From Metellina segmentata (Eukaryota > Arthropoda > Arachnida > Araneae > Tetragnathidae), in NCBI GenBank assembly GCA_947359465.1, contig OX375875.1, positions 13,898,538 through 13,962,537 of the forward strand: a DNA stretch of 64,000 bases. The letters are read 5' to 3'. Every line of letters starts with the position of its first letter. Position 1 is the stretch's first letter. Position numbers and translations under genes: made by a program. Below are positions 10,427-55,589 of this stretch, in pieces. The notes below the pieces were generated by a model. That model saw only the letters and a list, made by a program, of their open reading frames with translations. It was not told the origin of the DNA and ran no database searches.

Positions 10427-11176
10427 TAGGGATGCGACATCGATGTCGATGTTTTCAAAACATCGATGTTTTGATGTATTTAACATCGATGTATTGAAGT
10501 CGATGTTTTTGTAACATCGATGTTATACTTGTCGATGTTTTTACGTTGTCGATGTTTTATTTTTGAATGAAAAAAATACCGTTTTAAAAATTTAAAAACT
10601 AACCAAGTAGCATAATTTTTAAATTCAGCAAATCGAACATACTTTTAGACCAAAGTGGCCAAGTGTGAAGGGTCTGAAAAGTAGGGATGCGACATCGATG
10701 TCGATGCTTTCACAACATTGATGTTTTAGAAAAAAACATTAATGTATTGGATCCGATGTCCCATCACTAGTTGCTAAACCAGTTTTAAGAAATGGGGAAA
10801 CAAGTTTAAATACACTGAATTTTAAAAACATCGATGGTTTGTTGACGATTTGTATTATCAACATCAATGTTATAATTTTCAACATCGATGTTTTGCTGTC
10901 GATGTGGCATCAATAGTTGGAAAACTAGTTTTAAGAAATGGGGGAAACAAGTTTAAATACACTGAATTTTGAAAACATCGATGTTTTGCTGTCGATGTAG
11001 CATCACAAGTTGCTAAACCAGTTTTAAGAAATGAGTTTAAGTACACTGAATTTTAAAAACATCGATGTTTAAAAACCTCGATGTTTTTGGGTCGATGTAT
11101 TATTAACATCGATGTTTTAATTTTGAACATCGATGTTTCAAAACATCGATGTTTTGCTATCGATGTCGCATCCCTA
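10427..11176. mobile_element. hAT-type MITE filled with CATCGATG palindromes
   Basis: Perfect 8-bp TSDs GTTCCTAT lie at 10,419-10,426 and 11,177-11,184. Both ends begin TAGGGATGCGACATCGAT (18-bp TIR). The interior is a degenerate minisatellite of AACATCGATGTT palindromes on both strands. An internal repeat of the left end at about 10,684 suggests duplication or self-insertion. It has no coding capacity. Confidence 0.88.
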
Positions 11177-11331
11177 GTTCCTATCGTCCCTTTTTATGGA
11201 CATTTGAGTTTTTGACAGTAAAAATCTGCATTTTTAGTTGGATTTTTAAAAATATTTTTTTAGTTGATCTCACGATATTTACTTACAGTATACAAAATAT
11301 CTTCGGGAAAAAAATGTCAGGCATTAATGGG

Positions 11332-11968: not shown

Positions 11969-11972
11969 GTGC

Positions 11973-12523
11973 TGTAACATGGCTAACATTTGCCTAAAAC
12001 AGCTAGTGAAAAAAACTTTCTGCCACGTTGAGTGTGGGCGAAGGAAATGCACCCTATTAGAGGTTTTCTATGGATACTTCTAAACAGTATAATTCCATAG
12101 CGTGCTTCTAAAAATAGATTTCCCTCAGCCCCACTATGGGTTAACCTGATGTAAATTGGGACCCTCAGCGAGGCTAGGGAGGACGGCAGTTGACCGGGGA
12201 GGTCATCGACTCTGGACGCGGCGTCGGGGGTGGAAGAAAAAGCTGGAAGTTTTGGAGGGAGATGAGCTTTGGATTTTGCAGAGAGAACAACGATTTTGTT
12301 CTGGCTCCCACCCTGGGAAAAACTTTGCGGCAGAACCCTGCCAGAAACGATTGAATTATCATCTCGGATATCCCAACCTGGGATGAGATTTATTGTAATC
12401 AAACCACGTCATTTTGCCAAAGTGTAAAAATTAAGTTTTTTTTTATAATTTTTTTCTTTGTAAATAAAAAAAAAACTCGATTAATATAGAGTTTGATTGC
12501 ATTATTTAGCGTAAAACGCTACA
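11973..12523 (+). repeat. E1 5' LTR (551 bp)
   Basis: Runs from TGTAACATGGC to CGCTACA. It differs from the 3' LTR by about two substitutions and a few short indels (a 3-bp indel around ATTATCATCTCGG and A-run length). An AATAAA at about 12,463 is a candidate poly(A) signal. Open frames inside it occur identically in the 3' LTR and are not genes. Confidence 0.95.
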
Positions 12524-12542
12524 GCTTTAAAGATGGTTATTT

Positions 12543-12552
12543 TGGTGGCAGC
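12543..12552 (+). promoter_or_regulatory. Candidate primer-binding site of E1
   Basis: TGGTGGCAGC lies 19 bases after the LTR. Element E2 has TGGTGGCATG in the equivalent place, 12 bases after its 5' LTR. TGG is the complement of a tRNA CCA end. The conservation between two otherwise diverged leaders is suggestive; the tRNA was not identified. Confidence 0.45.
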
Positions 12553-12611
12553 CTACTTGGATGGCTTAACACCTGAAACTCCGAAAAGCGTTATTTTTTT
12601 TTTTGAACTTT

Positions 12612-13088
12612 TATCGAGCCAACCTGGCTGCTGAAACCTGTGTTCCTGAAACCGTAACAAAGCCTGTGGAACGGATCATCGAGCCAACCTGGCTGCTGAA
12701 ACCTGTGTTCCTGAAACCGTAACAAAGTCTGTGGAACGGATCATCGAGCCAACCTGGCTGCTGAAATCTGTGTTCCTGAAACCGTAACAAAGCCTGTGGA
12801 ACGGATCATCGAGCCAACCTGGCTGCTGAAACCTGTGTTCCTGAAACCGTAACAAAGTCTGTGGAACGGATCATCGAGCCAACCTGGCTGCTGAAATCTG
12901 TGTTCCTGAAACCGTAACAAAGCCTGTGGAACGGATCATCGAGCCAACCTGGCTGCTGGAATCTGTGTTCCTGAAACCGTAACAAAGCCTGTGGAACGGA
13001 TCATCGAGCCAACCTGACTGCTGAAACCTGTGTTCCTGAAACCGTAACAAAACCTGCGGAAACTGATCATCGAGCCAACCTGGCTGTG
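12612..13088 (+). repeat. E1 leader minisatellite, 65-bp unit, about 7 copies
   Basis: The phrase GAGCCAACCTGGCTGCTGAA recurs every 65 bp, eight times counting the partial last copy. Units differ by a few C/T changes. It sits between the 5' LTR and gag, in the untranslated leader. E2 has an unrelated-looking 77-bp repeat in the same position. Confidence 0.93.
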
Positions 13089-13516
13089 ATTGAATGCAAA
13101 AGTGTTCAAGTACCTAACTACTTCTGGTGTTGCCTGTGCTCCGGAAAACTTTCTGAAGGAGTGTCCTTAGAAGAAGACTGCAAAAAGAGTGAGTACTCCT
13201 TTTATTGAATGCACTTGAGGCAATTGGGGTGTTTTATTAAATTTAAATTAACCGTTGTGCTAAAATTTTAAGGGAAATACTTCGATAGTGTTTAATTATT
13301 ATGCTTCGTAGTGATACTCAGAAACAATAGAGTGATTTATGTTAAGGATTCTATTTTTATTTTTGTGTGAAATGTACATGTTTTATTAGTAGTTTTAGTA
13401 AAAAGCTAGTGAGTTAGAAATTTCTACTGTGAGAATTATTGTAAACTATCATAGAAAATTAAATTGAAGATTGTAGTAGTTGAAAGTATAGGTACGGTAT
13501 TGCTCAATTTTAAGCT

Positions 13517-14227
13517 ATGGCATTTTTAATGAGAGCAACTAAAGCTGAGTTGCTCGAGGTAGCAGATGATTTTGGCGTGTTAGCAGCAGAATCAATGAAT
13601 AAGGCTCAAATTATCGGGCTCATTAAAACAATACAAAATTATGATGAGGAAATGGTGAAAGATTCTGTAGAATCGGTGCGGGAAGAAAGAAAAAGGCAGT
13701 CGGAATTAGAGGAAAAGAAAGAACAAATTGAGTTAGAGCAAAGGGATAAAGAGAGAGAATTTGAATTAGAAAAACTACGTATTACGTCAGGAAATCAAAC
13801 TCGCGAATCGACCCCTTTAGAATCAAACATGAGGAGAACCTCTCCGGGACTAAAAAGATTTATGCCTAATTTTAATCCAGACGAAACGGATATTAGTCTG
13901 TATCTCACAACTTTTGAAAGGCAGGCTAGAGGCGCGTCGATAGACGAAGAGGAGTGGATAACTCAATTAATAGCATTGCTTCCTATAGAAATCGGGCAAA
14001 TCATAGTTAGAGAGACGCAAGACGAGTCTAAGACATATGCAGATGCTAAGAAAATTCTTCTGAATAGGTACAAGCTGGGCCCCGAAGCATTTAGAGTAAA
14101 ATTCGTGCAGCACACGCGGAAAGCGAACAGTCGTTGGCGAGATTTCGCCTATGAGTTGGAAAGCTATATGGAAGGATGGGTTGGAGGTCTAGGGATAGAC
14201 ACGTTTGAAAAGTTGAAAGCTCAATAG
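13517..14227 (+). CDS. gag: E1 Gag N-terminal part (coiled coil plus SCAN-like capsid)
   Basis: A 236-residue frame that should continue into the next frame; a one-base loss near 14,215-14,225 ends it early. Residues about 1-45 form a conserved N-terminal module also seen in E2 and E3. Residues about 50-95 are a highly charged E/K/R-rich coiled coil. Residues about 115-235 form the capsid, ending in a segment around LNRYKLGPEAFRVKFVQHTR and WRDFAYELESYMEGW. This resembles the SCAN domain, which is known to derive from the capsid of Gmr1-like elements. Gag forms the particle that packages element RNA. The start at 13,517 aligns with the E2 and E3 starts. Confidence 0.85.
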   Translation: MAFLMRATKAELLEVADDFGVLAAESMNKAQIIGLIKTIQNYDEEMVKDSVESVREERKRQSELEEKKEQIELEQRDKEREFELEKLRITSGNQTRESTPLESNMRRTSPGLKRFMPNFNPDETDISLYLTTFERQARGASIDEEEWITQLIALLPIEIGQIIVRETQDESKTYADAKKILLNRYKLGPEAFRVKFVQHTRKANSRWRDFAYELESYMEGWVGGLGIDTFEKLKAQ

Positions 14228-14235
14228 CCGACCAA

Positions 14236-15150
14236 ATGAAACGCAAAGCCGTGCCGGAAGCGAGGGAACATTTCATCGACACATGGAGAGAAATTATTTC
14301 GCCACTTGAGTTGGCAGACAAATTAGACCAATTTGAAACGGTCAGACAAAACTTTAGGAAACCTATGTCAGGTGGAAAGAAGGAGTTTCAGGGTGTTAAG
14401 TTTAACGAACCCCGTAGAAAGACGGAAGAAAAGTTAAATTTTGGGAGAAGGTTCGAAAGACCCCCATCTTCTCCGGAAAAAGTGAATCGTTTTGATCGGG
14501 CAAAAGAATTTGAAAAAAGGAGACCACTGCGCTGTTATGAGTGTAATAGCTTGGATCATCTCAGACCTTTCTGTCCTAAACTGAAAGAGAAAATATCAAG
14601 AGACATAAATGAATTAAGGTTAGTTGGTAGTGTAAAAAGGGAGTTTGAGCCGTATACAAGCGTAGGATCGGTAAACGGTCGTGAGTGTGAAATTCCTCGG
14701 GACTCAGGGGCTAGCATAGATTTAACCAGTGTTAATTATGCCCCAAAAGAAACGTGGACGGGCGAGATAGTCTGGGTGCGTACCCCACTTGATCCGCAAT
14801 CCAAGTGTCTACCTGTAGCGAGAGTCCGATTAGAGGGTGATTTTGGGAGGATTATAACAAAGGCGGCAGTGGTAGACAAAAATTTATGTCAAAAAAGGTA
14901 CTTGCTTAGTAACCGCACTGCAGAACTAATCGACGGCATTCCTGCGAATGGTAAGAAAAGGCTGGCTGAGATTAACGCTGTCACGCGATCTCAGAGTCAA
15001 AGGCGCGATAGAGAGAAGGACGTCGAGGATTCCCACCTAAACGAAAACAGCGCGTTGTCAATAAACACTCCTCAAGACGACTGCATTGTAGAGGAGGGAT
15101 CAGATAACGAAGGCGATGCAATGGGGAAACTACTCCCCTCGGAACGATAA
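14236..15150 (+). CDS. E1 Gag C-terminal part, nucleocapsid knuckle and protease
   Basis: This frame continues the capsid after the frame break (ADQMKRKAVPEAREHFIDTW matches E2 and E3). It has a single CCHC zinc knuckle near residue 100 (CYECNSLDHLRPFC, CX2CX4HX4C) for RNA binding. Near residue 155 a retropepsin active site reads RDSGASIDL (DSG triad). The frame ends at 15,150 and coding resumes in the frame starting near 15,116. In E2 the equivalent region is one uninterrupted frame, so the break here is most likely a mutation or sequence error, not programmed frameshifting. Confidence 0.85.
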   Translation: MKRKAVPEAREHFIDTWREIISPLELADKLDQFETVRQNFRKPMSGGKKEFQGVKFNEPRRKTEEKLNFGRRFERPPSSPEKVNRFDRAKEFEKRRPLRCYECNSLDHLRPFCPKLKEKISRDINELRLVGSVKREFEPYTSVGSVNGRECEIPRDSGASIDLTSVNYAPKETWTGEIVWVRTPLDPQSKCLPVARVRLEGDFGRIITKAAVVDKNLCQKRYLLSNRTAELIDGIPANGKKRLAEINAVTRSQSQRRDREKDVEDSHLNENSALSINTPQDDCIVEEGSDNEGDAMGKLLPSER

Positions 15151-16108
15151 CATAGGCGGAGAAAATCAGGCACTGATTGACTGCTCGCCCGAGCTGCTTC
15201 GAGACAGGCAGCGAAAATGTGAAACCTTGGGTGTGATTTGGAAAGGTTTAGGGGCAGAGGACAAAAGGATATGCAAAGAATATGTAGTTGAGAACGGATT
15301 ACTGTATAAAATCCAAAGGGATAAGATCGGGGATGAGAGAAAGCTAATTGTTGTCCCTGCAGAATTTAGAATGAGGATAATGGGACTTGTACACGATGAA
15401 TTAGCAGCGCATGCCGGTATGTTTAAAACAAAGGATAGGTTGGCAAGGCGGTTTTATTGGCCTGGGTGCTATAAAGATATAGAGAATTATGTAAGGACGT
15501 GTGACTCCTGCCAAAGAGTTGGAAAATCCTCGGATAAAAAGAAAGCGCCGATGAAACTAGTGCCCATTATCAAAGAAGTATTCAGTAAAATTAACATCGA
15601 CGCGTGTGGTCCCTTGGTGACAAGTGAGTCGGGGAACAGATACATCATCACAGCTATATGTTTAGCTTCGAAATACCCTGAGGCAGTTGCGACAAGAGAT
15701 ATCTCCTCTTTGAGCGTAACAGACGCACTTTTGCAGATATTCTCTAGGATCGGGTTCCCTATCGAGGTCCAATGTGATAGGGGGACTTCTGTCACGAGCA
15801 ATCTTACTACAGAATTTTTTGAGAAGTTTGGTATTAAAGTTACCCATAGTTCTGTCGCACACCCACAATCCAATCCTGTAGAACGGTTTCACCGAACTAT
15901 AAAAAGACTTTTGAGGGTATTGTGCATTGACGCAGGGGAATCGTGGGAGCGTCACTTGCCTGCGGCTCTGTTAGCGTTACGAACGGTAACCCATGAATCT
16001 ATAGGATTCTCCCCGTCAGAATTGGTTTTTGGGAAAAACCTTAGGACTCCTGTGAGGTTCTGCTGTACGACCACTGGGCGCAAAATTCTGGGGAAAGCAG
16101 TCCTGTAA
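15116..16108 (+). CDS. E1 integrase
   Basis: The frame holds the integrase N-terminal zinc site (H-X5-H-X29-C-X2-C, ending CDSCQ) and the catalytic core. The catalytic residues are D162 (NIDACGP), D221 (QCDRGTS) and E256 (NPVERFH), in frame numbering. I count 34 residues between the second Asp and the Glu, against 35 in canonical DD35E enzymes; E2 shows the same. Integrase inserts the cDNA into the genome. The core is followed by a frame break near 16,050-16,070, after which the C-terminal domain continues. It lies directly after protease and before RT. Confidence 0.9.
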   Translation: MQWGNYSPRNDNIGGENQALIDCSPELLRDRQRKCETLGVIWKGLGAEDKRICKEYVVENGLLYKIQRDKIGDERKLIVVPAEFRMRIMGLVHDELAAHAGMFKTKDRLARRFYWPGCYKDIENYVRTCDSCQRVGKSSDKKKAPMKLVPIIKEVFSKINIDACGPLVTSESGNRYIITAICLASKYPEAVATRDISSLSVTDALLQIFSRIGFPIEVQCDRGTSVTSNLTTEFFEKFGIKVTHSSVAHPQSNPVERFHRTIKRLLRVLCIDAGESWERHLPAALLALRTVTHESIGFSPSELVFGKNLRTPVRFCCTTTGRKILGKAVL

Positions 16109-16116
16109 CGGAACAT

Positions 16117-17940
16117 GTGTTTCAAATTTTGAACCGATTACGGAAAGCCCAAGAGTTAGCGGTAGAGAATAGGAGTGACGCGCAACAAAAACAAAAGTTG
16201 TGGTATGATAGGAACGCGGTCCGCCGTGACTTTAAGGTAGGAGACCAAGTTTTGGTTTTGGCTACCTCACGGCCAAATAAACTGGCGGCGCATTGGAAAG
16301 GGCCGGGCACTATAGACGCCCGAATCTCAGACACAAACTATATGATCAAGACAGGCGAAGGGAAGGAGAAATCCCAGATTTATCATGTGAATATGATAAA
16401 GCCATATTATAAAAGGCCAGAAATTATAAATTTGATAGAGTGGGAGGGAGAGACTGAGAATATAGAACATTCTGATTGGGACGTTCCGGTTTTAAACGAA
16501 GGTCCAGATACTCTGGATATGGAAGAAATAATTGAGAACAGCGAGTTGGGAAACAAACTAACTGACTCTCAAATTGATAAATTGCGGGGTTTACTAAAGA
16601 AACATGCCAAAGTGTTCTCGGATAACCCAGGGTTAACCGACATGGTAGAACATGACATTGTGCTTACTTCTGATAAACCACTGAGAACGAGACCGTACCA
16701 AACGTCACCGCGGCAAACAAAAATTCTGAAAAATGAAATTGAGAAAATGTTAGCTCGTAAAATTATAGAGATTGGAGAATCAGATTATGCATCACCAATG
16801 ATTCTTGTTGAGATTGAGGGTAAGGATCCGCGACCCTGTATAGATTATCGACGCTTAAACGCCATTACACGGACGGAATTTTTCCCGCTCCCTAATATTG
16901 AGGAAAGGGTTGAGAAGGTAGCATCCGCTACATATATAACAGTTCTAGATCTTACAAAGGGGTACTGGCAGATCCCCCTCACGAAAGAGGCGCAGCGTGT
17001 AGCCGGATTCGTAACCTCATTTGGGTCCTACCGTCCTTTAGTTCTTCCTTTCGGGTTGAAAAACGCCCCATTCTTTTTCAGCAAACTTATGGCTGAAATT
17101 TTGCAAGGCTGCGATGACTTCGCAGTACCTTATATTGACGATATTGCTATATTTTCCTCAGACTGGGATCAACCCATACTGGATGTAAACGAAGTATTAT
17201 CTAGGTTATACAGGGCGAAACTGAAGGTTAAACCGTCTAAATGTAAATTTGGACAAGACAGGGTCCCATACCTTGGTCACGTCGTTGGAAGTGGTATCCG
17301 AACTCCCGCCGAAGCTAAAATTAGCTGCATTAAAGAGTTTCCGCGCCCCACTACGAAGAGTGAAATAAGGAGTTTCCTGGGAATATCGGGTTACTATAGC
17401 CATTACATTAAAGGGTATTCTGAAATATCAGCGCCCTTAACGAACCTTTTACAGGGGAAAGTAAAGAAAGGGGACATCAAATGGGACAAGGAAAGTGAAA
17501 AGGCTTTCCAAACCCTGAAAGATCGACTCATCGCGAAGCCTGTGCTGCATGCGCCGGATTTTACTAGAGAATTTATAATTCAGTGCGATGCTTCGGATGT
17601 TGCTATAGGTGTGGTTCTATCCCAAAGGGTTGAGGGTAAAGAACATCCTGTTTTATACTTGAGCAAGAAATTCAGTCCGTCAGAAAAAAAATATAGTGCG
17701 ATAGAACGGGAGTTAGCGGCAATAATCTTTGCTCTAAAAAAGCTGAGATTTTATCTGGAAGGGAATCCTTTCTTGATACAGACTGACCACAAACCTTTAA
17801 AGTGGTTAGATTCTAATTCCGATACGAACCGACGACTGTTAAGATGGTCACTGTACTTACAGCCATTTAGCTACAAAATTGAGCATAGACCGGGAACTCA
17901 TAATAAAAATGCCGATTTTCTAAGTAGAATTGCGGCATGA
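16117..17940 (+). CDS. E1 integrase C-terminus, reverse transcriptase and RNase H
   Basis: A 607-residue frame. Residues about 1-110 are the integrase C-terminal module (VGDQVLVL, KGPGTI in place of the usual GPY, then QIYHVNMIKPYY). A linker leads to RT at about 205-385 with CIDYRRLN, LDLTKGYWQIPL and the intact YIDD box (Y339-D342). The RT thumb/connection has YLGHVV and FLGISGYY. RNase H at about 475-600 has QCDASD, ERELAA and QTDHKPL. The frame ends with a stop at 17,938-17,940. RT and RNase H are clearly Ty3/gypsy type. The domain order in one continuous frame proves integrase precedes RT. Confidence 0.93.
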   Translation: MFQILNRLRKAQELAVENRSDAQQKQKLWYDRNAVRRDFKVGDQVLVLATSRPNKLAAHWKGPGTIDARISDTNYMIKTGEGKEKSQIYHVNMIKPYYKRPEIINLIEWEGETENIEHSDWDVPVLNEGPDTLDMEEIIENSELGNKLTDSQIDKLRGLLKKHAKVFSDNPGLTDMVEHDIVLTSDKPLRTRPYQTSPRQTKILKNEIEKMLARKIIEIGESDYASPMILVEIEGKDPRPCIDYRRLNAITRTEFFPLPNIEERVEKVASATYITVLDLTKGYWQIPLTKEAQRVAGFVTSFGSYRPLVLPFGLKNAPFFFSKLMAEILQGCDDFAVPYIDDIAIFSSDWDQPILDVNEVLSRLYRAKLKVKPSKCKFGQDRVPYLGHVVGSGIRTPAEAKISCIKEFPRPTTKSEIRSFLGISGYYSHYIKGYSEISAPLTNLLQGKVKKGDIKWDKESEKAFQTLKDRLIAKPVLHAPDFTREFIIQCDASDVAIGVVLSQRVEGKEHPVLYLSKKFSPSEKKYSAIERELAAIIFALKKLRFYLEGNPFLIQTDHKPLKWLDSNSDTNRRLLRWSLYLQPFSYKIEHRPGTHNKNADFLSRIAA

Positions 17941-18203
17941 GAATCAAAATTGGAATTACATTCTTTAAAGAAATTGTGTATATAGTAAAGTGTTTTTTTT
18001 TTGTGTATATATTTTTGTATAAAGATACTCTGCTGCGTATCACAACGGAAGTAAGGTTAAATTGCTGTCCATTGTTTTTTTTTGTATGCTCTAATCTTGC
18101 CTCTCGTGTATATTCCTACGAGGAGTTACCGCTCTGAGTTTGGGTTCAAGAAACAAAATTAAAGGAACTCTCCGTTATGGTGGACTCTTAACGGTGGGGG
18201 AGC
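17941..18203 (+). promoter_or_regulatory. E1 3' untranslated region with polypurine tract
   Basis: Non-coding between the pol stop and the 3' LTR. The last 12 bases (18,192-18,203, CGGTGGGGGAGC) are purine-rich and directly abut TGTAACA, the expected place for the plus-strand primer. Confidence 0.7.
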
Positions 18204-18751
18204 TGTAACATGGCTAACATTTGCCTAAAACAGCTAGTGAAAAAAACTTTCTGCCACGTTGAGTGTGGGCGAAGGAAATGCACCCTATTAGAGGTTTTCT
18301 ATGGATACTTCTAAACAGTATAATTCCATAGCGTGCTTCTAAAAATAGATTTCCCTCAGCCCCACTATGGGTTAACCTGATGTAAATTGGGACCCTCAGC
18401 GAGGCTAGGGAGGACGGCAGTTGACCGGGGAGGTCATCGACTCTGGACGCGGCGTCGGGGGTGGAAGAAAAAGCTGGAAGTTTTGGAGGGAGATGAGCTT
18501 TGGATTTTGCAGAGAGAACAACGATTTTGTTCTGGCTCCCACCCTGGGAAAAACTTTGTGGCAGAACCCTGCCAGAAACGATTGAATTATCTCGGATATC
18601 CCAACCTGGGATGAGATTTATTGTAATCAAACCACGTCATTTTGCCAAAGTGTAAAACTTAAGTTTTTTTTTATAATTTTTTTCTTTGTAAATAAAAAAA
18701 ACTCGCGATTAATATAGAGTTTGATTGCATTATTTAGCGTAAAACGCTACA
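18204..18751 (+). repeat. E1 3' LTR (548 bp)
   Basis: Near-identical to the 5' LTR with the same TG...CA ends. Followed immediately by GTGC, the TSD copy. Confidence 0.95.
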
Positions 18752-18917
18752 GTGCGTACTTCTCAAGTCGAATCACCAAAAGCGTGGGACGATTCCTGTT
18801 TATGTTTGCTTACTTTGGAATTTTTATTTTTGCACACCGATTTCAATATGGATTGACATTAATGGATGACATCTTTATAATAAAAAACAAAACTACGTTT
18901 TTCACGCTTCACTTAAG

Positions 18918-23060: not shown

Positions 23061-23264
23061 AGTAGTGTGCCAAAACATTAAATTACTTGTTTAAAAAAAT
23101 TACAATTAACCTAAATTATTAACAGCAAACACAATAACACCATTACTAATTTAAATGCAATTAAATTTACACATTAATTACACGTGCAATTTGATTTAAA
23201 ACAAATGAATATTTACATAACACAGCTCTTCAGTGACGAACATACGACTTAGTGAATGTGCATT

Positions 23265-23757
23265 CCCATTCCGTTTTATTGAGCGATGGGAAATGTCAAA
23301 ATCGTGCGTCTGTAGCATTAATGCCCAGCGTAAAAGTCTGGAATTCGGGCCCGAATTCCTCCTGAGCCAAGTTAGTGGTCGATGATCAAAAATTATTGTG
23401 AATTTCGTCCCATCCAGATAATAATGCAGTTTCTTATGGCTTAAATTACAGCTGCGTATTCTCGTTCGATGGCACTATAATTCCGTTCCACCTGCGTGAA
23501 CGTTTTGCTTAAATTGAGTATGGGGTGATCATTTTCTGCTTGTTTTGGGACAAGTTCAACCCTACATCCGAACTGTCAGTTTGGACAATGACTGGATCAT
23601 CAAACCTGGGCACCTGTAGCACTGGAAACTTAACCAAGGCTTCCTTCAGCGCCTCGAATGCGGTCACACATTCCGTTGTCCAGGTGATTTTTTCTCTCTT
23701 CGTGTTCCCCTTTAATGCGACCGTCAGAGGAGCCGCGATTATGGATTAGCGGGGAAT
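23265..23757 (-). pseudogene. E4 RNase H relic
   Basis: Minus-strand frames read WTTECVTAFEALKEALVKFP, then VIVQTDSSDVGLNLSQ and, with stops, a degraded remainder. These are the start of a gypsy RNase H domain (first catalytic Asp in QTDSSD). Stops, frame changes and the Tc1/mariner insertion immediately to its right break it. Confidence 0.75.
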
Positions 23758-23758
23758 A

Positions 23759-25050
23759 CAGAGGCTGTTCGCACTTTTTTTAGACGATTTTGGTTAGCGG
23801 TAGTAAAAAATCGTTTGCTGCAAAAGAAATAATTGCAGTTGAACTATGTTTTTAAAAGTTAAAATTATCGTCTGTGGCTGGAGAGGTTTGTTTCTAATCA
23901 AAATGGCGCTTTTAACGAAGCAGTGGTTCGAAGGCAATATTTATGCTCTTTCCGAAGAGAAATATTCATATTCCGTTATCCAAAAACGACGTGAGAGTCA
24001 TGGTTTTGTGATATCTAAAGCGTCGATAGGTAATATCGTCAACAAGAAAGGAAAGAAACGTCAAATTGGAGCCTCAAGTGGGACAAAAATTCCAAACAAG
24101 TATCCAAGGAAGAAACGAACATCTTCGACTATTGCAAAGGCACGTTGTTTAATGTTAAAAGAAAATCCCCTTAGTCAAAGGACAGTTGCAAAATCATTAA
24201 AATGCTCGATGAACACTGTAAACAAAATGATAAACGTTGATTTAAATCTTACGAAACCGAAAAAACGCAATGTGTATCGTCTTTCTCCAAAGCATATCGC
24301 TGAACGCTGGACACGCTGCCGAATTCTATATGAAAAACACTTATACAAAAAAAATGGGAAAAAGTGTCACAATAGATGAATTATGGGTGTATTTAAATGA
24401 TTACAGCAAAAAAAAAGCCATTTATTATTATAAAAGTGTAGAAAAAAATTTAAGTACATGGTTCACAGAATCGAAAGAAAGTTTTTCTAAGGGATTCATG
24501 ATTGTTGCTGGTTTTTCATATAATGACAAGTTAAAAATAAAGAGAGTGGGAAAAAATGTCAAGATTAACTCCAAATACTATCAGGAACATATTTTATCGC
24601 CAATTTTTCTGAATGAAATACCATCGCTTTACCCACAGTGCCATCAATCTGTGGAACTCCATAGAGACAAAGCTAGCAGTCACACATCAAAATCCACTGT
24701 AAATTTCCTAAAAGAAATGGAACAAAAAAAAGGCCATACCCTTCACTGATATCCCTACTAAATCTCCCGATGTATCACCTATGGATTTTTGTGCTTTCGG
24801 ACTTTTAAAATCTGCATTATCCAAACGTCGTCCCACAACCCTTACAGGACTCTGGAAAGCTGTTCAGGAGGAATGGGATAGAATACCTCTTCTGACACTT
24901 CAAAAGGCATTATTATCCTGGAAATTACGGTGTCGAAAGATAGTTCAGAATAAGGGCTATCAAATAGAACATTTAAAACACAAGAATTTTATGTAATTTA
25001 GTTTTGTGAATACAATATATATTGTTTAAAAAATGTGTGAACAGCCTCTG
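23759..25050 (+). mobile_element. Tc1/mariner-superfamily element, 1,292 bp, TA TSD
   Basis: Left end CAGAGGCTGTTCGCAC and right end the inverse of CAGAGGCTGTTCACAC, both flanked by TA (23,757-23,758 and 25,051-25,052). It splits the RT/RNase H part of E4. It carries a nearly complete transposase broken only by two frameshifts. Confidence 0.9.
23846..24996 (+). pseudogene. Tc1/mariner-like transposase with two frameshifts
   Basis: Three overlapping frames together span the family's length (about 370 residues). The first carries the N-terminal helix-turn-helix DNA-binding region, with SQRTVAKSLKCSMNTVNKM as the second helix-turn-helix. The second holds VTIDELWVYLND (first catalytic Asp) and ELHRDKASSH (second Asp). 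The third holds SPDVSPMDFCAFG (third acidic residue, Asp). The spacing is about DD38-39D, uncertain because of the frameshift. Both frame breaks fall at runs of eight A (24,347-24,354 and 24,724-24,731), so they may be sequence errors. A usable start is the ATG in MALLTKQWF near 23,900. Confidence 0.85.
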
Positions 25051-25059
25051 TATATTTAC

Positions 25060-25920
25060 TATAGAACCTTGCTAACTCTAAAAATGACCATATTTGAGTC
25101 TTCATTTCAGGTTTGGCAGATTCAATTATGCATTTTACTTTGGCTTTGGCCGGTTGTACAATTCCATTAGCTATCTGATGTCCTAGGTATTTCACTTTGC
25201 TCTGCACGAATTTGCATTTACTCGGCTTCAACGTTAACTTCAACTTAACTTTTAGCTAGCACTATATCTACGTGTTGGAGATGCGATTCCTAATTAGCCA
25301 AGTAGATGGCCACATAGTCTAGATAGAGGATAGCAAAACTGTCGCACCCTTGCAGTAGTCCTGGGAGACTATAGAAAACATTTTAACATGCCTTAAGAGT
25401 AGATTTCTGAATTTCACAATCTGATCCGCCCCGAGATTTCCTTCCAACTCACTTCCTTTGAAGATTTCGCCGAAATCAAATACGTTTAGGTCATATTTTA
25501 TATGTGGGATGCCCCAGTCTAAATCTGATACTACCTCCCTTCCATCTTCCTGCATAACCAGATTAATAACCTCCTGTTGCTGATGATATAGTTTTAACAT
25601 GTTTATGTGATAGACTCTAACCTGTGTGTGTGGTTCGCTGTATCTCCTACCCTTACTAAATACTTGGTGTGTGAGATTTCTTTCTCTATTTCTCCAGGTC
25701 CTACCAACTGTGCAGTTAATTTATTGGCTCTTGAAGTTGCGAAAATTGATACTTGATTTCCTGGCTGGACTCGTTAACTGCATTCCGATCGTACAACATC
25801 TTCCGGTTACCCTGTAATTCAGTTAGCTGCTTAGTTGCTAATTCCTGGGATTTTTGGATTCGATTGAGGATTGTGAAAACGTGCTCCGTGACGAGAGACG
25901 ATTCACTCTCCGGTTCTGTC
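25060..25920 (-). pseudogene. E4 integrase C-terminus joined to a truncated RT
   Basis: Minus-strand frames first read TILNRIQKSQELATKQLTEL and MLYDRNAV, matching the integrase C-terminal region of E1. The linker follows (FDFGEIFKGSELEGNLGADQ). At about 25,365 the linker end (KMFSIVS) jumps directly to LQGCDSFAILYLDYVAIYLA, the RT active-site region, so roughly 170 residues of RT fingers and palm are missing. The YxDD box has become YLDY. The connection then reads LKPSKCKFVQSKVKYLGHQI. It is non-functional. Confidence 0.8.
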
Positions 25921-25984
25921 CACTTCTTTTATATCAAAGTTTCGGGTATCCGGAGATTTTTCCTGAAAACTAGCTCTGCCGGGT

Positions 25985-27385
25985 AAAATCCCAGATTTTC
26001 ATGTACTACCGTGCGGAAGCTACCGGATAAATTTGCCGGAAAGTGCCTCTTGTGGTGTTTTGGGCACCACAATAATACATATGGAGTGGGACTAAGCAGT
26101 TTCCGTTTTCAGCAATTTATTACACTTAAAAGGATTTCAATACAATAGGACCACTATTTACAGATGTATGTACAAGAAATTATATCTGCACGATTGTTCA
26201 CTAAGAAACATTAAGTTTATCTTCTGAAAGTTTGTATTTTTGTTTTCCCGGGGTTCGACTTCCCGTATAACTATTAAGCGAGCTATCTCGTCCAACACCT
26301 TCCTCTGTGCCTTCTCTCGCTCGAGTCACTTGCCTTCCTTTTCGGGGTATCAACCTCTCTCCTGGAATCCCAGTCTCACAATGACACCTCCCACACTCAT
26401 GGGGTGTCAAATCCCCACACGTGCGAAAGGGTCTTGAAACAGTTAGCCGGGGTGCGTCACAAACACCACTGTCAGGTGGAAATCGGGTGCACAAGTCGGA
26501 CGCCGACCTTGAGTTATTACCACACGTGGCTTTCGGATCCCTTCTCATGGAAAAGTTTCTTTTTCCAGCCGCCACGATCCCACACTCTCCCCTATTTGGA
26601 TGACACATAAAACCCTCAGTAGGCGTATCAAAGTTCAATGGAATCTTTCCACCGGATTAGATTGAGGATGAGCAATAGCACTATATATTATTTTAATTCT
26701 CAATCTATCGAAAATTTCAGTCATGTGTCTACTGGTGAAAGAAGTGCCATCTCTCTCGTCACACTACACTTCTTTAGGGAAAACCATGCGACTAAAAACT
26801 TACAAAAGCACATAGGTGACGGAGACCGAACAAATGTCGCCGAAGGGCATCGCTTCTGGGTATTTGTAGGACATGCATATCGCCGTAATTAAATACTCCT
26901 TCCCTGATTCTTAGTCCGGAAAGGAGCCACACGCATCGATATTAATACGCGGAAATTCTTCCGTAATTATCGGTTTTAACTTAAGGGGCGCTTTCTTCTG
27001 ATCTCGTGCTTTGTCGGCCCGTTGGCATGGATCGAAAGAACCCACGTAATTTTCCTTGTCCTTGAAGCATCCAGGCCAAAATAAATTTCTAGCTGAACGG
27101 TCCTTCGATTTAGTTAGGCCTAAGTGCCTAAGAAAGTTTCATGGCACATTGCTAGCAGTTTTCCCCTCAATCCCTTCGGAATAACAATCAAATCATTGAT
27201 TTCCCTTCTATTATTTTTCTGTTGTATAAATAACAGACCTTCTTTTAGAATCTCTCCATATTTCACACATGTTTCCGTAGTCTTTTCTCTAAACGCTTTC
27301 GTAATTTCACATTTTTGTTATTTTTCAACAATTTCCGATCTGCTAAAGCTATTTAATCTCGTTGTTCATCCGTCATACTACCCTC
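25985..27385 (-). pseudogene. E4 integrase relic
   Basis: On the minus strand the zinc-site end (FWPGCFKDKENYVGSFDPCQ) is followed by APLKLKPIITEEFPRINIDA with the first catalytic Asp and ITAICMSYKYPEA. Next comes IAHPQSNPVERFH with the catalytic Glu and, after an insertion, RHFPANLSG and GFYPAELVFRKNLRIPE. Stops and frameshifts are scattered. Every block has a counterpart in E1 and E2 in the same order. Confidence 0.85.
26051..26571. mobile_element. Unidentified 0.5-kb insertion inside the E4 integrase
   Basis: The integrase reading breaks at CCACGATCCC on the right and resumes at AAGTGCCTCT on the left, where E1 and E2 are continuous, so about 520 bp were inserted. It starts TGTGGTGTTTTGGGCACCAC and is GC-richer than its surroundings. 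A solo LTR is possible, but I see no clear target duplication. A 145-residue open frame inside it (minus strand) has no recognisable domain. Confidence 0.6.
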
Positions 27386-42924: not shown

Positions 42925-43241
42925 CGAAAAACGATATTGCGCATGCCTGATGCAAAAGTGTCCAAGAAAAACGGTGACAACGCTTTGAGCTCGTAACTGC
43001 AATATTTTTCCTGTTGGGGTGTTTTTTTGCTCTTATATTGTATCGGGTGTTGATTTCCATCATCGGTTTTCACTAACAATACAGTTCCAAATCGGAGCCT
43101 GCTTGCATCAGTATGCAATTCCAGAGGTACTCCCTGTTTAAAAATGTGCAAAACAGGTCTTAGAGACAAAATGTCCTTCAATTTGTTAAATGATTCTAAT
43201 TGTTTTACACCAATCGTGAATACATTTTCTTTTCGTAGCAA
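42925..43241 (-). pseudogene. E3 RNase H relic
   Basis: The frame carries FNKLKDILSLRPVLHIF, ELHTDASRLRFGTVLL (first catalytic Asp), HPIQYKSKKTPQQEKYCSYE (catalytic Glu region) and then decays. This is the gypsy RNase H start and middle; the QTDH block is missing. Confidence 0.85.
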
Positions 43242-43302
43242 GTAGCTTAATATGGCTTAGCGATTATTGTTGGATACATTTACGTAAATATCCTTTCAGT
43301 CC

Positions 43303-43500
43303 ATCACGTTGGGTTGGCGTGGAAGTTTGGAGAGTGGGGTGCCAGCTCAGGTGTTACTTCGTCATCTGACCGTGGTTCAAAATTACGAGGTGTTGTCCTC
43401 GGATCTTTCCCTTAAGGGACTGATCCCGGACCGTCGTCAATAGCCCGTTGTGTTGCTCTAGTACGACGTTAACTAAAAATTACCATTACCATTACCATTA
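43303..43500 (+). repeat. 5'-truncated SINE with 11-bp TSD (copy i)
   Basis: Flanked by CCTTTCAGTCC (43,292-43,302 and 43,501-43,511). It starts in the SINE body and ends with (ATTACC)n tail units. The long TSD and tail repeat show LINE-mediated insertion into E3. Confidence 0.9.
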
Positions 43501-43511
43501 CCTTTCAGTCC

Positions 43512-45060
43512 TAGAAATGATTGCACTTGTTTTACCGATTTAGGGATTGGAAAATTTTTTACAGCCAAAGTTTTATTTGGGGAAGGTTGAATTGTACCAT
43601 TTTCAATTACATATACGAGGAATTCTATCTTTCTTTTTAAGAATTTGGCACTTTTTGAAATTTAGTTCTAGACCATTGTCTGTGGCGACTTTTAAAACGC
43701 GTTTCAGTTTCTCTAAGCCTTCTGCTTTGACCTGTGAAAGAATACTAATATCGTCTAAGTAAACTACAACAGTGTTGTCATGAATTAGTTCTCTGAAGAC
43801 ATTATTCAAGAATCGAATTTATACATTTGGAGATGTATATAGACCAAATGGAGCTTTTACAGATTCATACTGCCCGTTATGAGTAATAAACTCGTATATA
43901 TTTTTTAAAAGCCCGTTATATCTCTTACTAGCCACTGTGTGGCTAGCCCGGCGTTGTCCGTGCAAACCAACACCACGGGAAACGCCTTGATATAAGGTGT
44001 ACTGGTGTAAAATTTTCCGCATATTTCAAATCCGTTGAAGATATATTCAATTTAAAACTATTTATTTAAAGAAAATCATATTTTTAAGTAACAATCTGAA
44101 CTGAAATTTTCCGCAGATTTCTAATCCGTTGAAATTTTTACTCAAAATTTAACGGTCTAAGAGATAGAAAAAAGAACTAAGTGACTCCAGTTAAGATTTA
44201 TCGTCTGGCTGGAAAAAAATTCGTCCGCGCAAAATCAAAGCAGAGTGGAAAAAAATTATTTTCTCCGCGTACAAAATGAAAGCGGAAACGTAAAAAATAA
44301 TTTTCTGACCGTTCTCCGAAGCGACGAAAAAAACTTTGCATGGTTCCAAGGTCACGTTGGTAGAAAAGTCAAGATTGGAGTTATTCTTCTTTCGTCCGGA
44401 CAAAGAAGCAGGTAGAGAATAAAACTATTAAATTCATTTAAAAATCTTCTAGATTGAATTTTAAAATTCGCCGCTACCCAAAAATTGCAAAAACTTCGGA
44501 CTACCTGTGTGCCAAATCTCATTGCTGTAAGTGCCATAGAATCGTCAGGATTTTGCGGCCCCAAACAGACAAACACTTCCTTTTATAATATTAGAGAAGA
44601 CAAATGCGGTATTTACTGCTAGCCTTTTCGATTTCCACATGGAAGAATCCATTTTTTAGATCAAGTGAAGTATAAACATTCGATGTTTCCAATTTATCTA
44701 GAACGTCTTATATTAAAGGGAGAGGGTATTTATCTTTAATGACCTTTTTATTTAGTTTTCTGTAGTCAATACAGAGCCGATGCGAGCCGTATTTCTTTTT
44801 ACTCAGCACAACATAAGCTCATTTTTACTCAGCACATGTTTTGCATAATTCCTTCCGATAGCCAAAATTGAACTTGATCGTTAATAATAGTTTGCTATGG
44901 GGGGCAAAGTCAAAACGCCGTGGTCGTTCCGTTATTGGATTTTCATCATTCAGAACTATTCTCACTTTGAAATCTGTCGTAATTCTGAATAAGTGATACC
45001 ACTTCCTGTCTAGATCTATTTCGTTCAAATGGATTGCATCGCTGTCACGAAATCAAAATT
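43512..45060 (-). pseudogene. E3 reverse transcriptase relic (split by a Helitron)
   Basis: On the minus strand the RT N-terminal part (NPITERPRRFDFAP and neighbours, 45,028-44,825) leads to a palm segment. After the Helitron this continues with ITHNGQYESVKAPFGLYTSPNV, the active site VVVYLDDISILS (near 43,745) and FKKCQILKKK. The YLDD box is intact. A canonical gypsy order is seen, with RT following the protease region closely. Confidence 0.85.
43928..44597 (-). mobile_element. Non-autonomous Helitron inside the E3 RT
   Basis: On the minus strand the element starts TCTCTAATATTATAAAAGG and ends CTAGCCACACAGTGGCTAG, followed by T. The terminal 19 bases are a perfect hairpin (CTAGCCAC-ACA-GTGGCTAG). 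The RT coding sequence resumes on both sides with no target duplication. The base before the 5' end is T, not the usual A. It is the same family as 31,937-33,828. Confidence 0.75.
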
Positions 45061-45189
45061 ATTTCTCAACGTCCGAGTTGTGGAGTTCGGAGTTGTAACA
45101 TGCTCGCAGCTGGAATCGTATTAGGGGGGGGGGGGCAATGACATCAAACACAGATGATATTCTTTTTTGAATGCATGGAGGATTGGGGT

Positions 45190-45560
45190 TTCATTTAACG
45201 GGAGTGTGATCGGATTTTATTTCTACATAGCTTACATGAAATGTATTTTTCATACCCCTAATTTCGACACCATTCTCATTTATGGAAATATTCAATTTGT
45301 TGAGAACATCAGTTCCGATAATAGTTTCAGAACACAGTTTTTTTTTGCACATAAATATCACTTTCGACAGAACAATTATCAAAAGACATCTTATTATGAA
45401 AAAATCCTAGCGGACAAATATTTTCACTTCCAATTCCTGTCAAAGATACATTATTAAAGGATAATTTTGGAGACCCAATTTTAATATAACATTCATAGCT
45501 GATCATGGATAATTCTGATCCAGTATCTAATAGAGCATTTATTTTAAAATCTTAAATTAC
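45190..45560 (-). pseudogene. E3 protease-region relic
   Basis: Minus frames read INALLDTGSELSMISYEC-like sequence near 45,530-45,490, with an aspartic-protease style D-T-G triad, followed by CSETIIGTDVLNKLNISI (the hydrophobic-GxD box of retropepsins). Decayed by a frameshift. Confidence 0.65.
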
Positions 45561-45692
45561 CACAGTTGTTTCGATTTTACTTGTACGATTATTAGTACTA
45601 GTAATATTAGAGCTTTGATTACATCTGTTTGGTCACAAAAACCAGAAACATGTCCGAACTTAAAACATTTTGAGCATTTCGGACCTTCTTAT

Positions 45693-45927
45693 TTAAACAT
45701 TAAGAGGCCTTGTGCCCATATAAATTACAGTTAAAACAACGTATTTTTGCTCTATTTTCGTGTTTAATACCATAATTGTACTTACATTTTGAATTGTAAA
45801 CCTTTGGTTGAGCACGAACGATTGATACTGCTTTTTCATGATTCTTGATAAATGGGTTCTTGTTGATATTTTCATACGTCCTTCGGTTTGTTTCTTTTTT
45901 GAAATTACGATTTAACGAAATTACCAT
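45693..45927 (-). pseudogene. E3 zinc-knuckle region
   Basis: Overlapping minus frames contain RCFNCNLYGHKAS followed, across a stop, by Cys, i.e. a CX2CX4HX4C nucleocapsid knuckle. Basic residues precede it. Confidence 0.7.
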
Positions 45928-46675
45928 CTAATTTACCATCTAAATTACCATCCTCAATATTTTTAATTTTGGGCAGCTCATCTATAAAGTGTTCACGTAC
46001 TTCAGAGGGTATTTTCTGTTTCAGTTGGTCTGAAACCAAATATTTTAAATCTTCGAAAGTTCTGACGTTTAATCCGGATGTCCATTCATCGAAATAATTT
46101 TCCAGTTCAAATGCAAAATCGCGCCAAGAGACAGACGGTTCTTTTTTATGGGCAACAAATTTTTGGCGGAATCGTTCAGGGCTTAACTTGAAACGTTTTA
46201 GGAGCAATGTTTTAACATGACTGTATTCGTTAGCATCTGGATCAGGTTCTCTGGCGACAATATTGACAATTTCCTATGGAAGTAAATGTGTGACCCAATA
46301 TTCCTTGAGAATTTCAATACGACTTATCTGTCTTTCAAACAATGACAGATAGACACTAATATCACTACCCATATCATAACGAGGCATTAATTTTAATAAG
46401 TTTTGCGTTTTCGGGACTGTTGAAGAAACAGGACTGTCAGTCTTTATTTTCGCTTCTAGTTCTAATTTTCTTAATTCAAATTCTCGACTTTCTGTCTCTT
46501 TCCGTTCGGCAGAGATGACTTCTAAGCGAATTTTTGCAAAACTTTCATCGTACTCATCATCTTTAGTAATTAGTTTTACTATCTCAGGGATTTTAGCACC
46601 AGGTTGTACAGTTGATCCTAATTCATCGGTGCGATTTAGGAGATCAATCTTTCGTGCTCTTTGTAAGAATGTCAT
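45905..46675 (-). pseudogene. gag: E3 Gag with SCAN-like capsid
   Basis: From the ATG at 46,675 (MTFLQRARKIDLLNRTDELG) the frame runs through a charged coiled coil to EYWVTHLLP. One in-frame stop near 46,273 follows, and then it continues through the SCAN-like capsid (LLKRFKLSPERFRQKFVAHK, WRDFAFELENYFDEW, DQLKQKIPSEVREHFID). The segment is strikingly close to E2 and E1 Gag. In the family Gag assembles the particle. The upstream open frame to 46,882 is probably leader. Confidence 0.85.
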
Positions 46676-51230: not shown

Positions 51231-51273
51231 TATAGAAATACATTTAAAAGATATTCCGGAAGTGTACGTTACA
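51231..51273 (-). repeat. E2 3' LTR, truncated to 43 bp
   Basis: Identical over its length to the outer end of the 5' LTR (TACATTTAAAAGATATTCCG and GTGTACGTTACA). It stops exactly at the end of the DD41D transposon; sequence beyond that transposon is not LTR. Confidence 0.9.
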
Positions 51274-51395: not shown

Positions 51396-54300
51396 CTACA
51401 AAACTATAAAATTAAGCTCAAAGGACATTTTGGTAACGTAGAACAGTCGGCTAAGGCTGTCAGCATTCTGGTGTTTTCTACCCTGACGACGGATTACCTC
51501 ATAGTTCCAGGGCTGCAATGCAAGAGCCCATCTCATGAGACGTGGATTTACCCCAGAGTTCTTTTTTAACCATACTAGAGGATTATGATCAGTTTGGATA
51601 AAGAACCTGGTAGGTCCATCCAGGTAGCATCGTAGCTTCTTGACAGCAAACACAATAGCGGCACATTCCTTTTCGGCTTTCAAGATCTGCGAATGTCGGA
51701 CCGACATTCGATATGGCTTCGCACAGAGGGGCTTTATTTCAGAAAGTTCGATATCAAACTGGATACGATCTGTGAGGCCAGGCACGTTTGAGAAACAATT
51801 GGAATATTTACATATAATACAACTGAGCTGATCAATCTGGTCGTCATCCAGTCTTCCTTTCACTTCACTGTTTCTCAATATCTCCTCGAGATCAAAAATA
51901 TTGGGATTGTTTTCCACGGGCGGGAATTCTTCTTCCAACTCTGATTCTTCATCCTCACAAGTAGTGACCAGATTTATGAATTCAGGCCTCTGGTAATAAG
52001 GTTTTAAAAGATTTACATGGTAGATTTGTGACGAATTTTTCCGGTTAGGCAGGGCAACAAAGTAGTTCGTCTCCGAAATCTTGCTTTCAATGGTCCCAGG
52101 ACCATTAAATTGAACCGCTAACTTATTTACAGGTGAGGGTGCCAGTACCAGTACTTTATCTCCAACATTGAATTCACGTTTCACGGTATTTTTGTCGTAC
52201 CATTTTTTTCTTTTCTTGGCAGCTTCCTCCATATTTTCAATGGCTAGGCAGCGACATTTTTCCAATCTTCTGAGAAGATTGAGGATATATTCAACAACTG
52301 AAGAATTTCCTTCTTCCGGCTGTAACCAGTTTTCATACAGAGGAGTGACGGGAGTCCGTAAGTTTTTTCCATGAACCAATTCAGCTGGACTGAATCCGGT
52401 GGATTCATGAGTAACTGTCCTTAAGGCGAACAAGACTGCATGGACATGCTTCTCCCAATCTGGTCCTTCTTCGTTACACAAAACTCTCAAAATCCGTTTC
52501 AGGGTACGATGAAACCTTTCTACCGGATTGCTCTGGGGATGATACACAGAGCTAAGTACCACCTTGATGCCGAAACGTTCAAAAAATTCCGATGTGAGTT
52601 CGCTCATAAACGAGGTTCCCTGGTCGTGTTGAAACTCCTTAGGAAAACCCATTCGACTAAAAATCTGAAAGAGAGCATTAATTACGGATCTAGATGTTAT
52701 GTTTGGTACTGCCACAGCATCTGGGTACTTCGACGACATACACATTGCCGTAATCAGGTATCTTTGGCCTGAGTCCGTCACGGGCAAAGGTCCTACAGCG
52801 TCAATATTAATACGGGAAAAAACTTCAGTAATCACTGGAACAAGAGTCATCGGCGCTTTTTTCTTGTCCCTTGCCTTTCCAGCTCTCTGGCAGGAATCGC
52901 AAGCCTTCACGAAGTCCTCTGCTTCTTTGTAACAGTTTTTCCAGAAAAAGTACTTGGTCATTCTGTCTTTGGTCTTGGTGGTCCCAAGATAACCTGACGT
53001 GCCTTCATGACACAATTTCAGTATCTTTTCTCGATACTCTATGGGCACGACGATGACCTTCCTTTCGATACCACTCTTGTCCTTCTTGATCTTTACCAAA
53101 AGTCGGCCCTTCTCCAGTTCAAAATCTTTAGGAGGGTTTCCATTTTGGATTTGTTTTACTTGAGAGCTCATCTCTTCATCTTCACCTTGAGCCTTGATTA
53201 GCTGCTCAGTGTCCACTTTTAACAATTCAGTGATATCTTGATCTTCTGCCACCTGAGTGAACTCGTCACTTACTTCCCCTGTTTCCATTTCATTTTTTTC
53301 CAAGGTACTGAATTCTTCGGCTGGGATAGGGTTTTCGGATTCTTTAATTAAAGATTGAGATTCTTCCCTTTCTTTCACTTTTTTCTGATGCCTTGTCAGT
53401 ACTGCATTTATTTGATCCACAGATTGACAATCTTCCCTTTTTAACAAGGCAGCAGTCCGATTCCCTAAAAGATATCGTCCGCGGTCTAGTTCATCTGGAA
53501 TCACAGCAGCCTTAGTGAGTGTTTTTCCCAATTCACACTCTACCAAAACTTCGGCAAGATGTAAACAAGTTGAGCTGGAGTCCAAAGGTTGCTGTACCCA
53601 AACATGTTCACCAGTCATGTCAGCTGAATTCACCAATTTCCGACACACAATGTCAATGGTCGCTCCGGTATCTCTTAGTAAATTTATATCCTGACCGTTT
53701 ATTTTTCCTTTCATGATAAACGGTTCCAGGTATTTCTCAGGTTCTTTGTCCGAAATGTAATTTACAGTTTCCGAAGGTTTCTTCAACTTTGGACAATTTG
53801 GTCGGATATGACCAGGCTGATTGCAATGAAAACACCGCATCTGTCTCCTGCGGTCGAATTCCGGATTTGGGTCTTGTTCGGAAAATCTTCGTTCTATCTT
53901 AACCCCTTTACCATTCATGGTATCACTTCTCCTTGGTGGATTATCGGTCTTTTCAAACTTATTTTGAACTCGACCCTCGAACTTGTCTTTCGCAAAGACA
54001 GGGTTTCGTTTCACAGTTCGTCTAACGTCTTCAAACTTCTCCAACAGTTCCACCAAATCTGTAGGGGAGTTTATTTCTGTCCATTCTCTGAGATACATAT
54101 CCTTAAATTCGGATGGTGTTTTTTTCTTCATCTGATCTGTGATGACCAAATCTCTCAGTTTTTCAAAAGTAAGGACCTGACAACCTGCAATCCATCCATC
54201 GAAATAAGTAGACAATTCATGATAGAAATCCCTCCAGTTCCGATCAACTGCTTTATGGTGTGAACTAAATAACTGTCGAAATCTTTCTGGTGTTAGTTTG

Positions 54301-55064: not shown

Positions 55065-55589
55065 GATTAAATTCTAAACAGTTTCCCCCTTTTGGACTCA
55101 AATATAACGTAAGGTACAAAATGAAAACTTTTCGAAACCGAAACCGTCCAGAATTCTGACTTACCTTATAGCCAAGCCACAAGAAATATAACTCAAAGAT
55201 AATAGAACAATAGAAAAGAAATAAATGTACAAAAACCAATTTTGTAACCCAAAAGACCTTCAAAAGAAAATTAATTAAAAAAAAAATTTAAATCAAAATA
55301 CCATTTCAAATACAAAACAAATTTAAATTATTAATTAAGATAAATAATCATCTACGACAACTAAAATCTCTTAAATTTCTATTTCACATAAATTCCAAAT
55401 CAATACTAATTTCTATTATAAAAGCAAAATTTGCAATTAAGAAATTTTTTTGTTTCGAAACCTGTTACGATAAATGGAAGTTATCACAAAAACAGAAGTA
55501 AAATTGTACATTAAATATAATAGTGCATAAAACTTTAGATTTAAAACCGAAACCACTTATCTGGAACAGTTGCTTGATGGTACACAGGA

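What the first reader, a model, noticed from the sequence alone, without database searches (positions are those of the whole stretch)
11973..18751. Gypsy-type retrotransposon with integrase before RT (Gmr1-like) in an arthropod-like genome
E1 reads Gag-protease-integrase-RT-RNase H. The 16,117-17,940 frame contains the integrase C-terminal domain followed by RT and RNase H without interruption, so the order is not an assembly artefact. RT and integrase motifs are Ty3/gypsy-like. Gmr1-like elements with this order were originally described from deuterostomes (established knowledge); an apparently arthropod, young, complete copy is unusual.
Basis: partly seen in the sequence, partly recalled or inferred. 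Interest (0 to 1): 0.82.

Follow-up and report, generated by a model that had tools for sequence, protein, structure and literature searches.

The report
Damaged spider retrotransposon with integrase-first order
This is one slightly damaged copy of a jumping gene of a known kind (Gmr1-like, with its DNA-inserting enzyme placed before its copying enzyme), in what is probably a spider genome where that kind is abundant, so it is a sound but mostly ordinary find.

Summary
Window 11973-18751 is an LTR retrotransposon: LTRs of 551 and 548 bp (543 of 551 columns identical), a 4-bp target duplication, then Gag, protease, integrase (IN), RT, RNase H. The order is real: seven other genomic copies show it, 97-99% identical to E1 in the last frame, and of 292 related proteins 211 hold both domains, 210 with IN before RT. 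RT is of Ty3/gypsy type. RT and IN trees both place E1 in a set whose named rows are spiders, beside ticks, among integrase-first elements of frogs, turtle, medaka, amphioxus, hemichordate, molluscs and shrimp. Gmr1-like is well supported, though Gmr1 itself and most conventional Ty3/gypsy clades could not be added.

Two parts of the reading fail. Such elements are not unusual in arthropods: crustacean ones were reported in 2013 (PMC3587641), and spider and tick relatives dominate the named database hits. And E1 is complete in structure but not intact: three frame breaks split its coding region, while other copies in the same genome are open. The family is young: two of ten other paired copies have identical LTRs. 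New member of a known kind; low interest.

The parts
11969..11972 (.). left target-site duplication GTGC
11973..12523 (+). 5' LTR, 551 bp, TG...CA
   Evidence: 40 scored LTR matches in the genome, this one included
12543..12552 (+). primer-binding-like stretch TGGTGGCAGC, 19 nt behind the LTR; likely tRNA-Leu (tRNA match recalled, not tested)
   Evidence: sequence; a similar TGGTGGCA stands behind the 5' LTR of the copy at 51-56 kb
12613..13086 (+). 65-bp minisatellite, 7.3 copies, between LTR and gag
13514..14227 (+). gag, first part: N-terminal helices with a weak SAP/Rho_N resemblance, a long helix, start of capsid; frame 2
14209..15150 (+). rest of capsid, CCHC knuckle (14533), protease with D-S-G (in the motif at 14698); frame 1
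15092..16108 (+). integrase: H2C2 zinc domain and DDE core; frame 2
   Evidence: Pfam PF17921, PF00665; motif places
16045..17940 (+). integrase C-terminal domain, then RT (PYIDDIA motif at 17128), then RNase H; frame 1
   Evidence: Pfam PF22938, PF00078, PF17919, PF17917; motif places
18193..18203 (+). polypurine-tract-like GGTGGGGGAGC just before the 3' LTR
   Evidence: sequence; function inferred
18204..18751 (+). 3' LTR, 548 bp
18752..18755 (.). right target-site duplication GTGC
23217..27248 (-). decayed relative with the same order (IN, RT, RNase H), interrupted between RT and RNase H
   Evidence: tblastn
42966..46675 (-). decayed relative: gag, then RT, then RNase H; no integrase match between gag and RT at E 1e-3
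   Evidence: tblastn
51396..55073 (-). relative E2: single 1225-aa frame Gag-protease-integrase-RNase H with the RT part missing in frame; 5' LTR at 56704-56288, 43-bp remnant of the 3' LTR at 51273-51231

Best explanation
E1 is one copy of a recently active family of Gmr1-like Ty3/gypsy LTR retrotransposons in an arachnid, most likely spider, genome. Shown: LTRs, 4-bp target duplication, all domains with catalytic motifs, IN placed before RT, and sister copies with long open frames (1476 aa). Inferred from LTR retrotransposons in general: a transcript from LTR to LTR is translated as one Gag-Pol protein (in intact relatives), the protease cuts it, the particle copies RNA into DNA from a tRNA primer, and integrase joins the DNA to the chromosome with a 4-bp duplication. 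The integrase-first order is inherited, as in integrase-first elements of other phyla, and is thought here to change only the order of the enzymes along the polyprotein. This copy has three frame breaks and by itself cannot make the full protein as sequenced.
For: LTRs, TSD; domains and order; Ty3 the best solved match for RT-RNase H (237 bits; next an 'Enzymatic polyprotein' chain at 187.9; all other chains 108.6 or fewer); eight of eight fetched genomic loci, E1 and seven others, with protease-IN-RT-RNase H order and 97-99% DNA identity to E1 in the last frame; 70 scored matches of 12,945 first-look candidates in the own genome; 40 scored LTR matches of 408 candidates, at 95-100%; 4-bp TSDs in 8 of 10 other paired copies and identical LTRs in 2 of 10; IN before RT in 210 of the 211 proteins that hold both, of 292 examined; nearest row P0154 in all RT and IN trees built.
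Against: The frames are broken in three places, so this copy itself is not autonomous as sequenced. The split between integrase-first and conventional rows is only moderate (RT 86/91; IN 71/84; RT 76 in the 130-row quick tree) and rests on two to four conventional rows, with long branches flagged by the program. E1's own Gag gives no Pfam SCAN match. TSDs were not seen in 2 of 10 other paired copies, one of which has an LTR match that starts at base 3.
Confidence: 0.93

Rival explanations
1. The integrase-first order arose separately in an arachnid lineage of conventional Ty3/gypsy elements, so the family only resembles Gmr1.
For: Conventional reference clades and the type element Gmr1 were not available; the split from conventional rows is moderate or weak.
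Against: Arachnid rows lie among integrase-first rows of frogs, turtle, medaka, amphioxus, hemichordate, molluscs and shrimp in both careful trees; tick relatives carry a Pfam SCAN domain (P0218), a domain traced to Gmr1-like Gag (passages of PMC4592553, and PMC3424704); one of those rows is from Xenopus tropicalis, for which about 200 Gmr1-like copies are in print (as Silurana, passages of PMC4131045).
Confidence: 0.05
2. A Ty1/copia element, read as gypsy by mistake.
For: The domain order alone is that of copia.
Against: Pfam finds RVT_1, RT_RNaseH and Integrase_H2C2 and no copia-type family at E 0.01; Ty3 is the best solved match.
Confidence: 0.01
3. Order made by misassembly or by nesting of two elements.
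For: The window holds interrupted and nested elements.
Against: IN C-terminal domain and RT lie in one frame; eight of eight fetched genomic loci (E1 and seven others) show the same order.
Confidence: 0.01

Closest known systems
Gmr1-like Ty3/gypsy elements (Gmr1 of cod; reported in crustaceans, an annelid, frogs, fish)
   Same: Order protease-IN-RT-RNase H as given for Gmr1 (passages of PMC2582038), Ty3/gypsy RT, single Gag-Pol frame in intact relatives, LTR and protein size like the fish Gmr1-4 table (LTR 337-518 bp, 1506-1634 aa; PMC11117352, passages)
   Different: Arachnid lineage, about 40% identical to the frog relative P0240 in IN and in RT-RNase H; E1 has a minisatellite before gag and three frame breaks
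Spider elements filed in databases as 'retrovirus-related Pol polyprotein from transposon 297/17.6/412' (Araneus, Trichonephila, Argiope and others)
   Same: Same domain order; 47-60% identity in the named spider hits that cover 96% or more of the E1 frame; Araneus, Argiope, Oedothorax, Stegodyphus and Uloborus rows fall in the same set as E1 in the careful RT and IN trees
   Different: Not called Gmr1-like in the database titles seen
Ty3 of yeast (conventional Ty3/gypsy)
   Same: RT-RNase H homologous
   Different: In the solved Gag-Pol chain 7q5b the match to RT-RNase H (584-1009) lies before the match to IN (1087-1328)

Membership tests
Gmr1-like Ty3/gypsy retrotransposons | integrase upstream of RT in pol | tested here: met
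   relatives; definition in passages of PMC3587641, PMC6238403 and PMC2582038
Gmr1-like Ty3/gypsy retrotransposons | RT and RNase H of Ty3/gypsy type | tested here: met
   Pfam; Ty3 best solved match
Gmr1-like Ty3/gypsy retrotransposons | RT and IN phylogeny inside the Gmr1 clade | tested here: inconclusive
   E1 lies among integrase-first elements of several phyla, but Gmr1 itself and the Mag, CsRn1 and Gypsy clades were not available; split from conventional rows 86/91, 71/84 and 76
Gmr1-like Ty3/gypsy retrotransposons | SCAN-related capsid in Gag | tested here: inconclusive
   A profile of E1 Gag with 17 relatives matches the SCAN-domain chains of ZNF24 and ZNF174 (E 5.6e-6 and 5.1e-5); Pfam SCAN at E 0.1 or better in 10 of 18 members of A2, but not in E1's own Gag, whose capsid is cut by a frame break; Foldseek gave no match at E 0.001
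LTR retrotransposon | paired LTRs, TG..CA ends, target-site duplication | tested here: met
   8 of 10 other paired copies have 4-bp duplications
Intact autonomous Gmr1-like element | single open Gag-Pol frame | tested here: not met
   E1 frames 2-1-2-1 with three breaks; other copies have open frames of 1476 aa
Ty1/copia | copia-type RT and integrase | tested here: not met
   (no copia-type family among the matches at E 0.01)

The most novel reading that the evidence does not exclude
Arachnid integrase-first elements form a large, still active clade of their own whose Gag begins with a SAP/Rho_N-like nucleic-acid-binding fold that helps steer integration or nuclear entry, a Gag layout that I did not see described for Gmr1-like elements (not searched for by name).
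Probability: 0.08. Interest if true: 0.4.

Novelty: new member of a known kind. Interest (0 to 1): 0.17.

Why it matters
As far as the searches here went, it extends the described host range of Gmr1-like elements from crustaceans, an annelid and deuterostomes to spiders and ticks, and shows that database titles such as 'transposon 297' hide them. It also fits the view that the integrase-first order is an old layout kept in several animal phyla and not a deuterostome oddity.

Tried and rejected

Considered and rejected: copia, misassembly, a one-off shuffle in E1. The one protein with RT before IN, P0242 of a pseudoscorpion, holds two RT-RNase H-IN sets and looks like conventional elements side by side.

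Rows dropped and limits: of 292 proteins, 81 lacked a match to IN or RT at E 1e-4 and were not counted for order. The 127-row tree set needed both domains nearly full length, with P0242 left out. The careful trees used 43 picked rows of those 127, plus E1 and 4 conventional rows (RT), or E1, E2 and 3 conventional rows (IN). The proteins came from three searches (with E1, E2 and P0181), each of which lists only its best 120, so the order count leans toward relatives of E1. The open-frame and copy counts are lower bounds by the tool's own words.

Literature: ten searches, pairing Gmr1 with retrotransposon, arthropod, spider, insect, Chelicerata, arachnid, SCAN and gypsy, and 'spider genome' with gypsy, LTR retrotransposon and integrase. 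I saw listings, and passages of twelve papers: PMC3587641, PMC8220671, PMC8556966, PMC4592553, PMC6238403, PMC2774666, PMC9415403, PMC11117352, PMC3424704, PMC6562904, PMC2582038, PMC4131045. The passages seen describe no arachnid Gmr1-like element; the one Chelicerata match was a DOI fragment, and the arthropod survey PMC6562904 has no word beginning with Gmr. Papers seen only in listings were not checked. The library lacks most subscription journals.

Full report
What is there. Between 11973 and 18751 lies an LTR retrotransposon in plus orientation. The LTRs (551 and 548 bp) match in 543 of 551 alignment columns, with 5 mismatches and 3 gap columns, start with TG, end with CA, and are flanked by GTGC on both sides. 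Behind the 5' LTR come a primer-binding-like TGGTGGCAGC at 12543, a 65-bp minisatellite with 7.3 copies, and then coding sequence in four overlapping frames: 13514-14227, 14209-15150, 15092-16108 and 16045-17940. Pfam finds Integrase_H2C2 and the rve core in the third frame, and integrase C-terminal domain, RVT_1 and two RNase H models in the fourth. Catalytic motifs stand in place: D-S-G of protease, DDE of integrase, YIDD of RT, acidic residues of RNase H (places; motif meaning recalled). Gag and protease are read from relatives and motifs, as Pfam has no match above its cut-off in the first two frames.

Is the order real. In the window's own genome (1.665 Gb, 173 contigs) the search scored 70 of 12,945 first-look candidates. 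Thirteen rows, E1 included, are 89-100% identical to the last frame of E1 and the other 57 are 56-64% identical. In the eight fetched loci, E1 and seven copies elsewhere, protease, integrase, RT and RNase H follow in this order, with 97-99% DNA identity to E1 in the last frame. Inside the window a decayed copy at 23217-27248 (minus) has IN, RT and RNase H in the same order, and E2 at 51396-55073 (minus) has Gag-protease-IN-RNase H in one 1225-aa frame with the RT part missing. Misassembly is excluded in practice.

How whole and how young. Against relatives with one long frame, E1 changes frame near 14222, between about 15090 and 15150, and near 16052: in the capsid, between protease and integrase, and late in integrase. 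Other copies in the genome have open frames of 1476 aa, so the breaks are damage, or assembly error, in this copy and not a family trait. Forty LTR matches of 408 candidates were scored, at 95-100% identity; 22 of the 40 form 11 pairs about 6 kb apart, E1's among them. In the ten other pairs the LTRs differ by 0 to 12 mismatches, two pairs are identical, and 8 of 10 show a 4-bp duplication; of the two that do not, one pair has an LTR match that starts at base 3, so its edge is unsure. The family has moved recently; by mismatches E1 (5) ranks third oldest of the eleven.

What it is. The best solved relative of the RT-RNase H part is Ty3 (237 bits; next an 'Enzymatic polyprotein' chain at 187.9 bits, all other chains 108.6 or fewer), and integrase matches foamy-virus and Ty3 integrase. 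Named database relatives are mostly spiders (Araneus, Trichonephila, Argiope, Oedothorax, Stegodyphus, Uloborus) and ticks (Ixodes, Ornithodoros, Haemaphysalis) (each lists its best 120). A search started from a more distant relative, P0181, also reached frogs, a turtle, medaka, amphioxus, a hemichordate, two molluscs, a shrimp and a pseudoscorpion. Of 292 proteins, 211 hold both domains, and 210 of these have IN before RT; 81 lack one. The exception, P0242 of the pseudoscorpion, carries two sets with RT before IN. The 11 named deuterostome, mollusc and shrimp proteins checked have IN first. In the careful trees E1 falls in a set whose named rows are spiders (RT 100/97; IN 99/92), beside a tick set, the two together at 100/100 in both trees, and its nearest row is the unnamed P0154 in both, as in the quick trees. 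Agreement of RT and IN argues that the two domains travelled together. The line between integrase-first and conventional rows is moderate or weak (RT 86/91, IN 71/84, RT 76 in the 130-row tree) and rests on two to four conventional rows with long branches. One integrase-first row is from Xenopus tropicalis, where about 200 Gmr1-like copies are reported (as Silurana, PMC4131045, passages).

What is known. [quoted passage not shown] An annelid lineage followed in 2021 (PMC8220671, passages), and the background of another 2021 paper lists Gmr1 among clades present in several phyla (PMC8556966, passages). The premise that an arthropod Gmr1-like element would be unusual is out of date. I found no paper in this library that names them in arachnids, but unnamed sequences are plentiful.

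Verdict. A real, ordinary, slightly damaged member of a known kind, in a group of hosts where the searches here found no description by name. Interest is low; the integrase-first layout as a trait kept in several animal phyla is the only point of general note.

Noticed in passing
window 12613-13086 and 55640-56189: Both E1 and E2 carry a minisatellite (65-bp and 77-bp units) between the primer-binding-like site and gag; the two units look unlike each other by eye.
   Followed up: partly
window 51396-55073 (-): E2 keeps one open 1225-aa frame although about 320 residues of RT and early RNase H are missing in frame; a Gag-protease-integrase-RNase H protein without RT.
   Followed up: partly
window 49722-51236: Tc/mariner-like DNA transposon with 128-bp inverted repeats (98% complementary) and an open 359-aa transposase (DUF4817; HTH_Tnp_Tc3_2 below its cut-off), directly next to a 43-bp remnant of E2's 3' LTR.
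   Followed up: partly
[not shown]
   Followed up: partly
window 11983-12408 (-) and 18214-18636 (-): Both LTRs hold an antisense stop-to-stop frame of 141 and 140 aa.
   Followed up: no
P0034, P0122, P0259: Relatives of E1 filed under archaeal or bacterial metagenome bins (Asgard group, Nitrososphaeraceae, Thiodiazotropha), probably animal DNA in those bins.
   Followed up: no
window 10427-11183: Cluster of diverged repeats built on ACATCGATGTTTT palindromes.
   Followed up: no
window 23217-27248 (-): Decayed Gmr1-like copy whose RT and RNase H parts are separated by about 1.3 kb that holds plus-strand frames (23843-24749) with at most weak helix-turn-helix matches, perhaps a nested DNA transposon.
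   Followed up: partly
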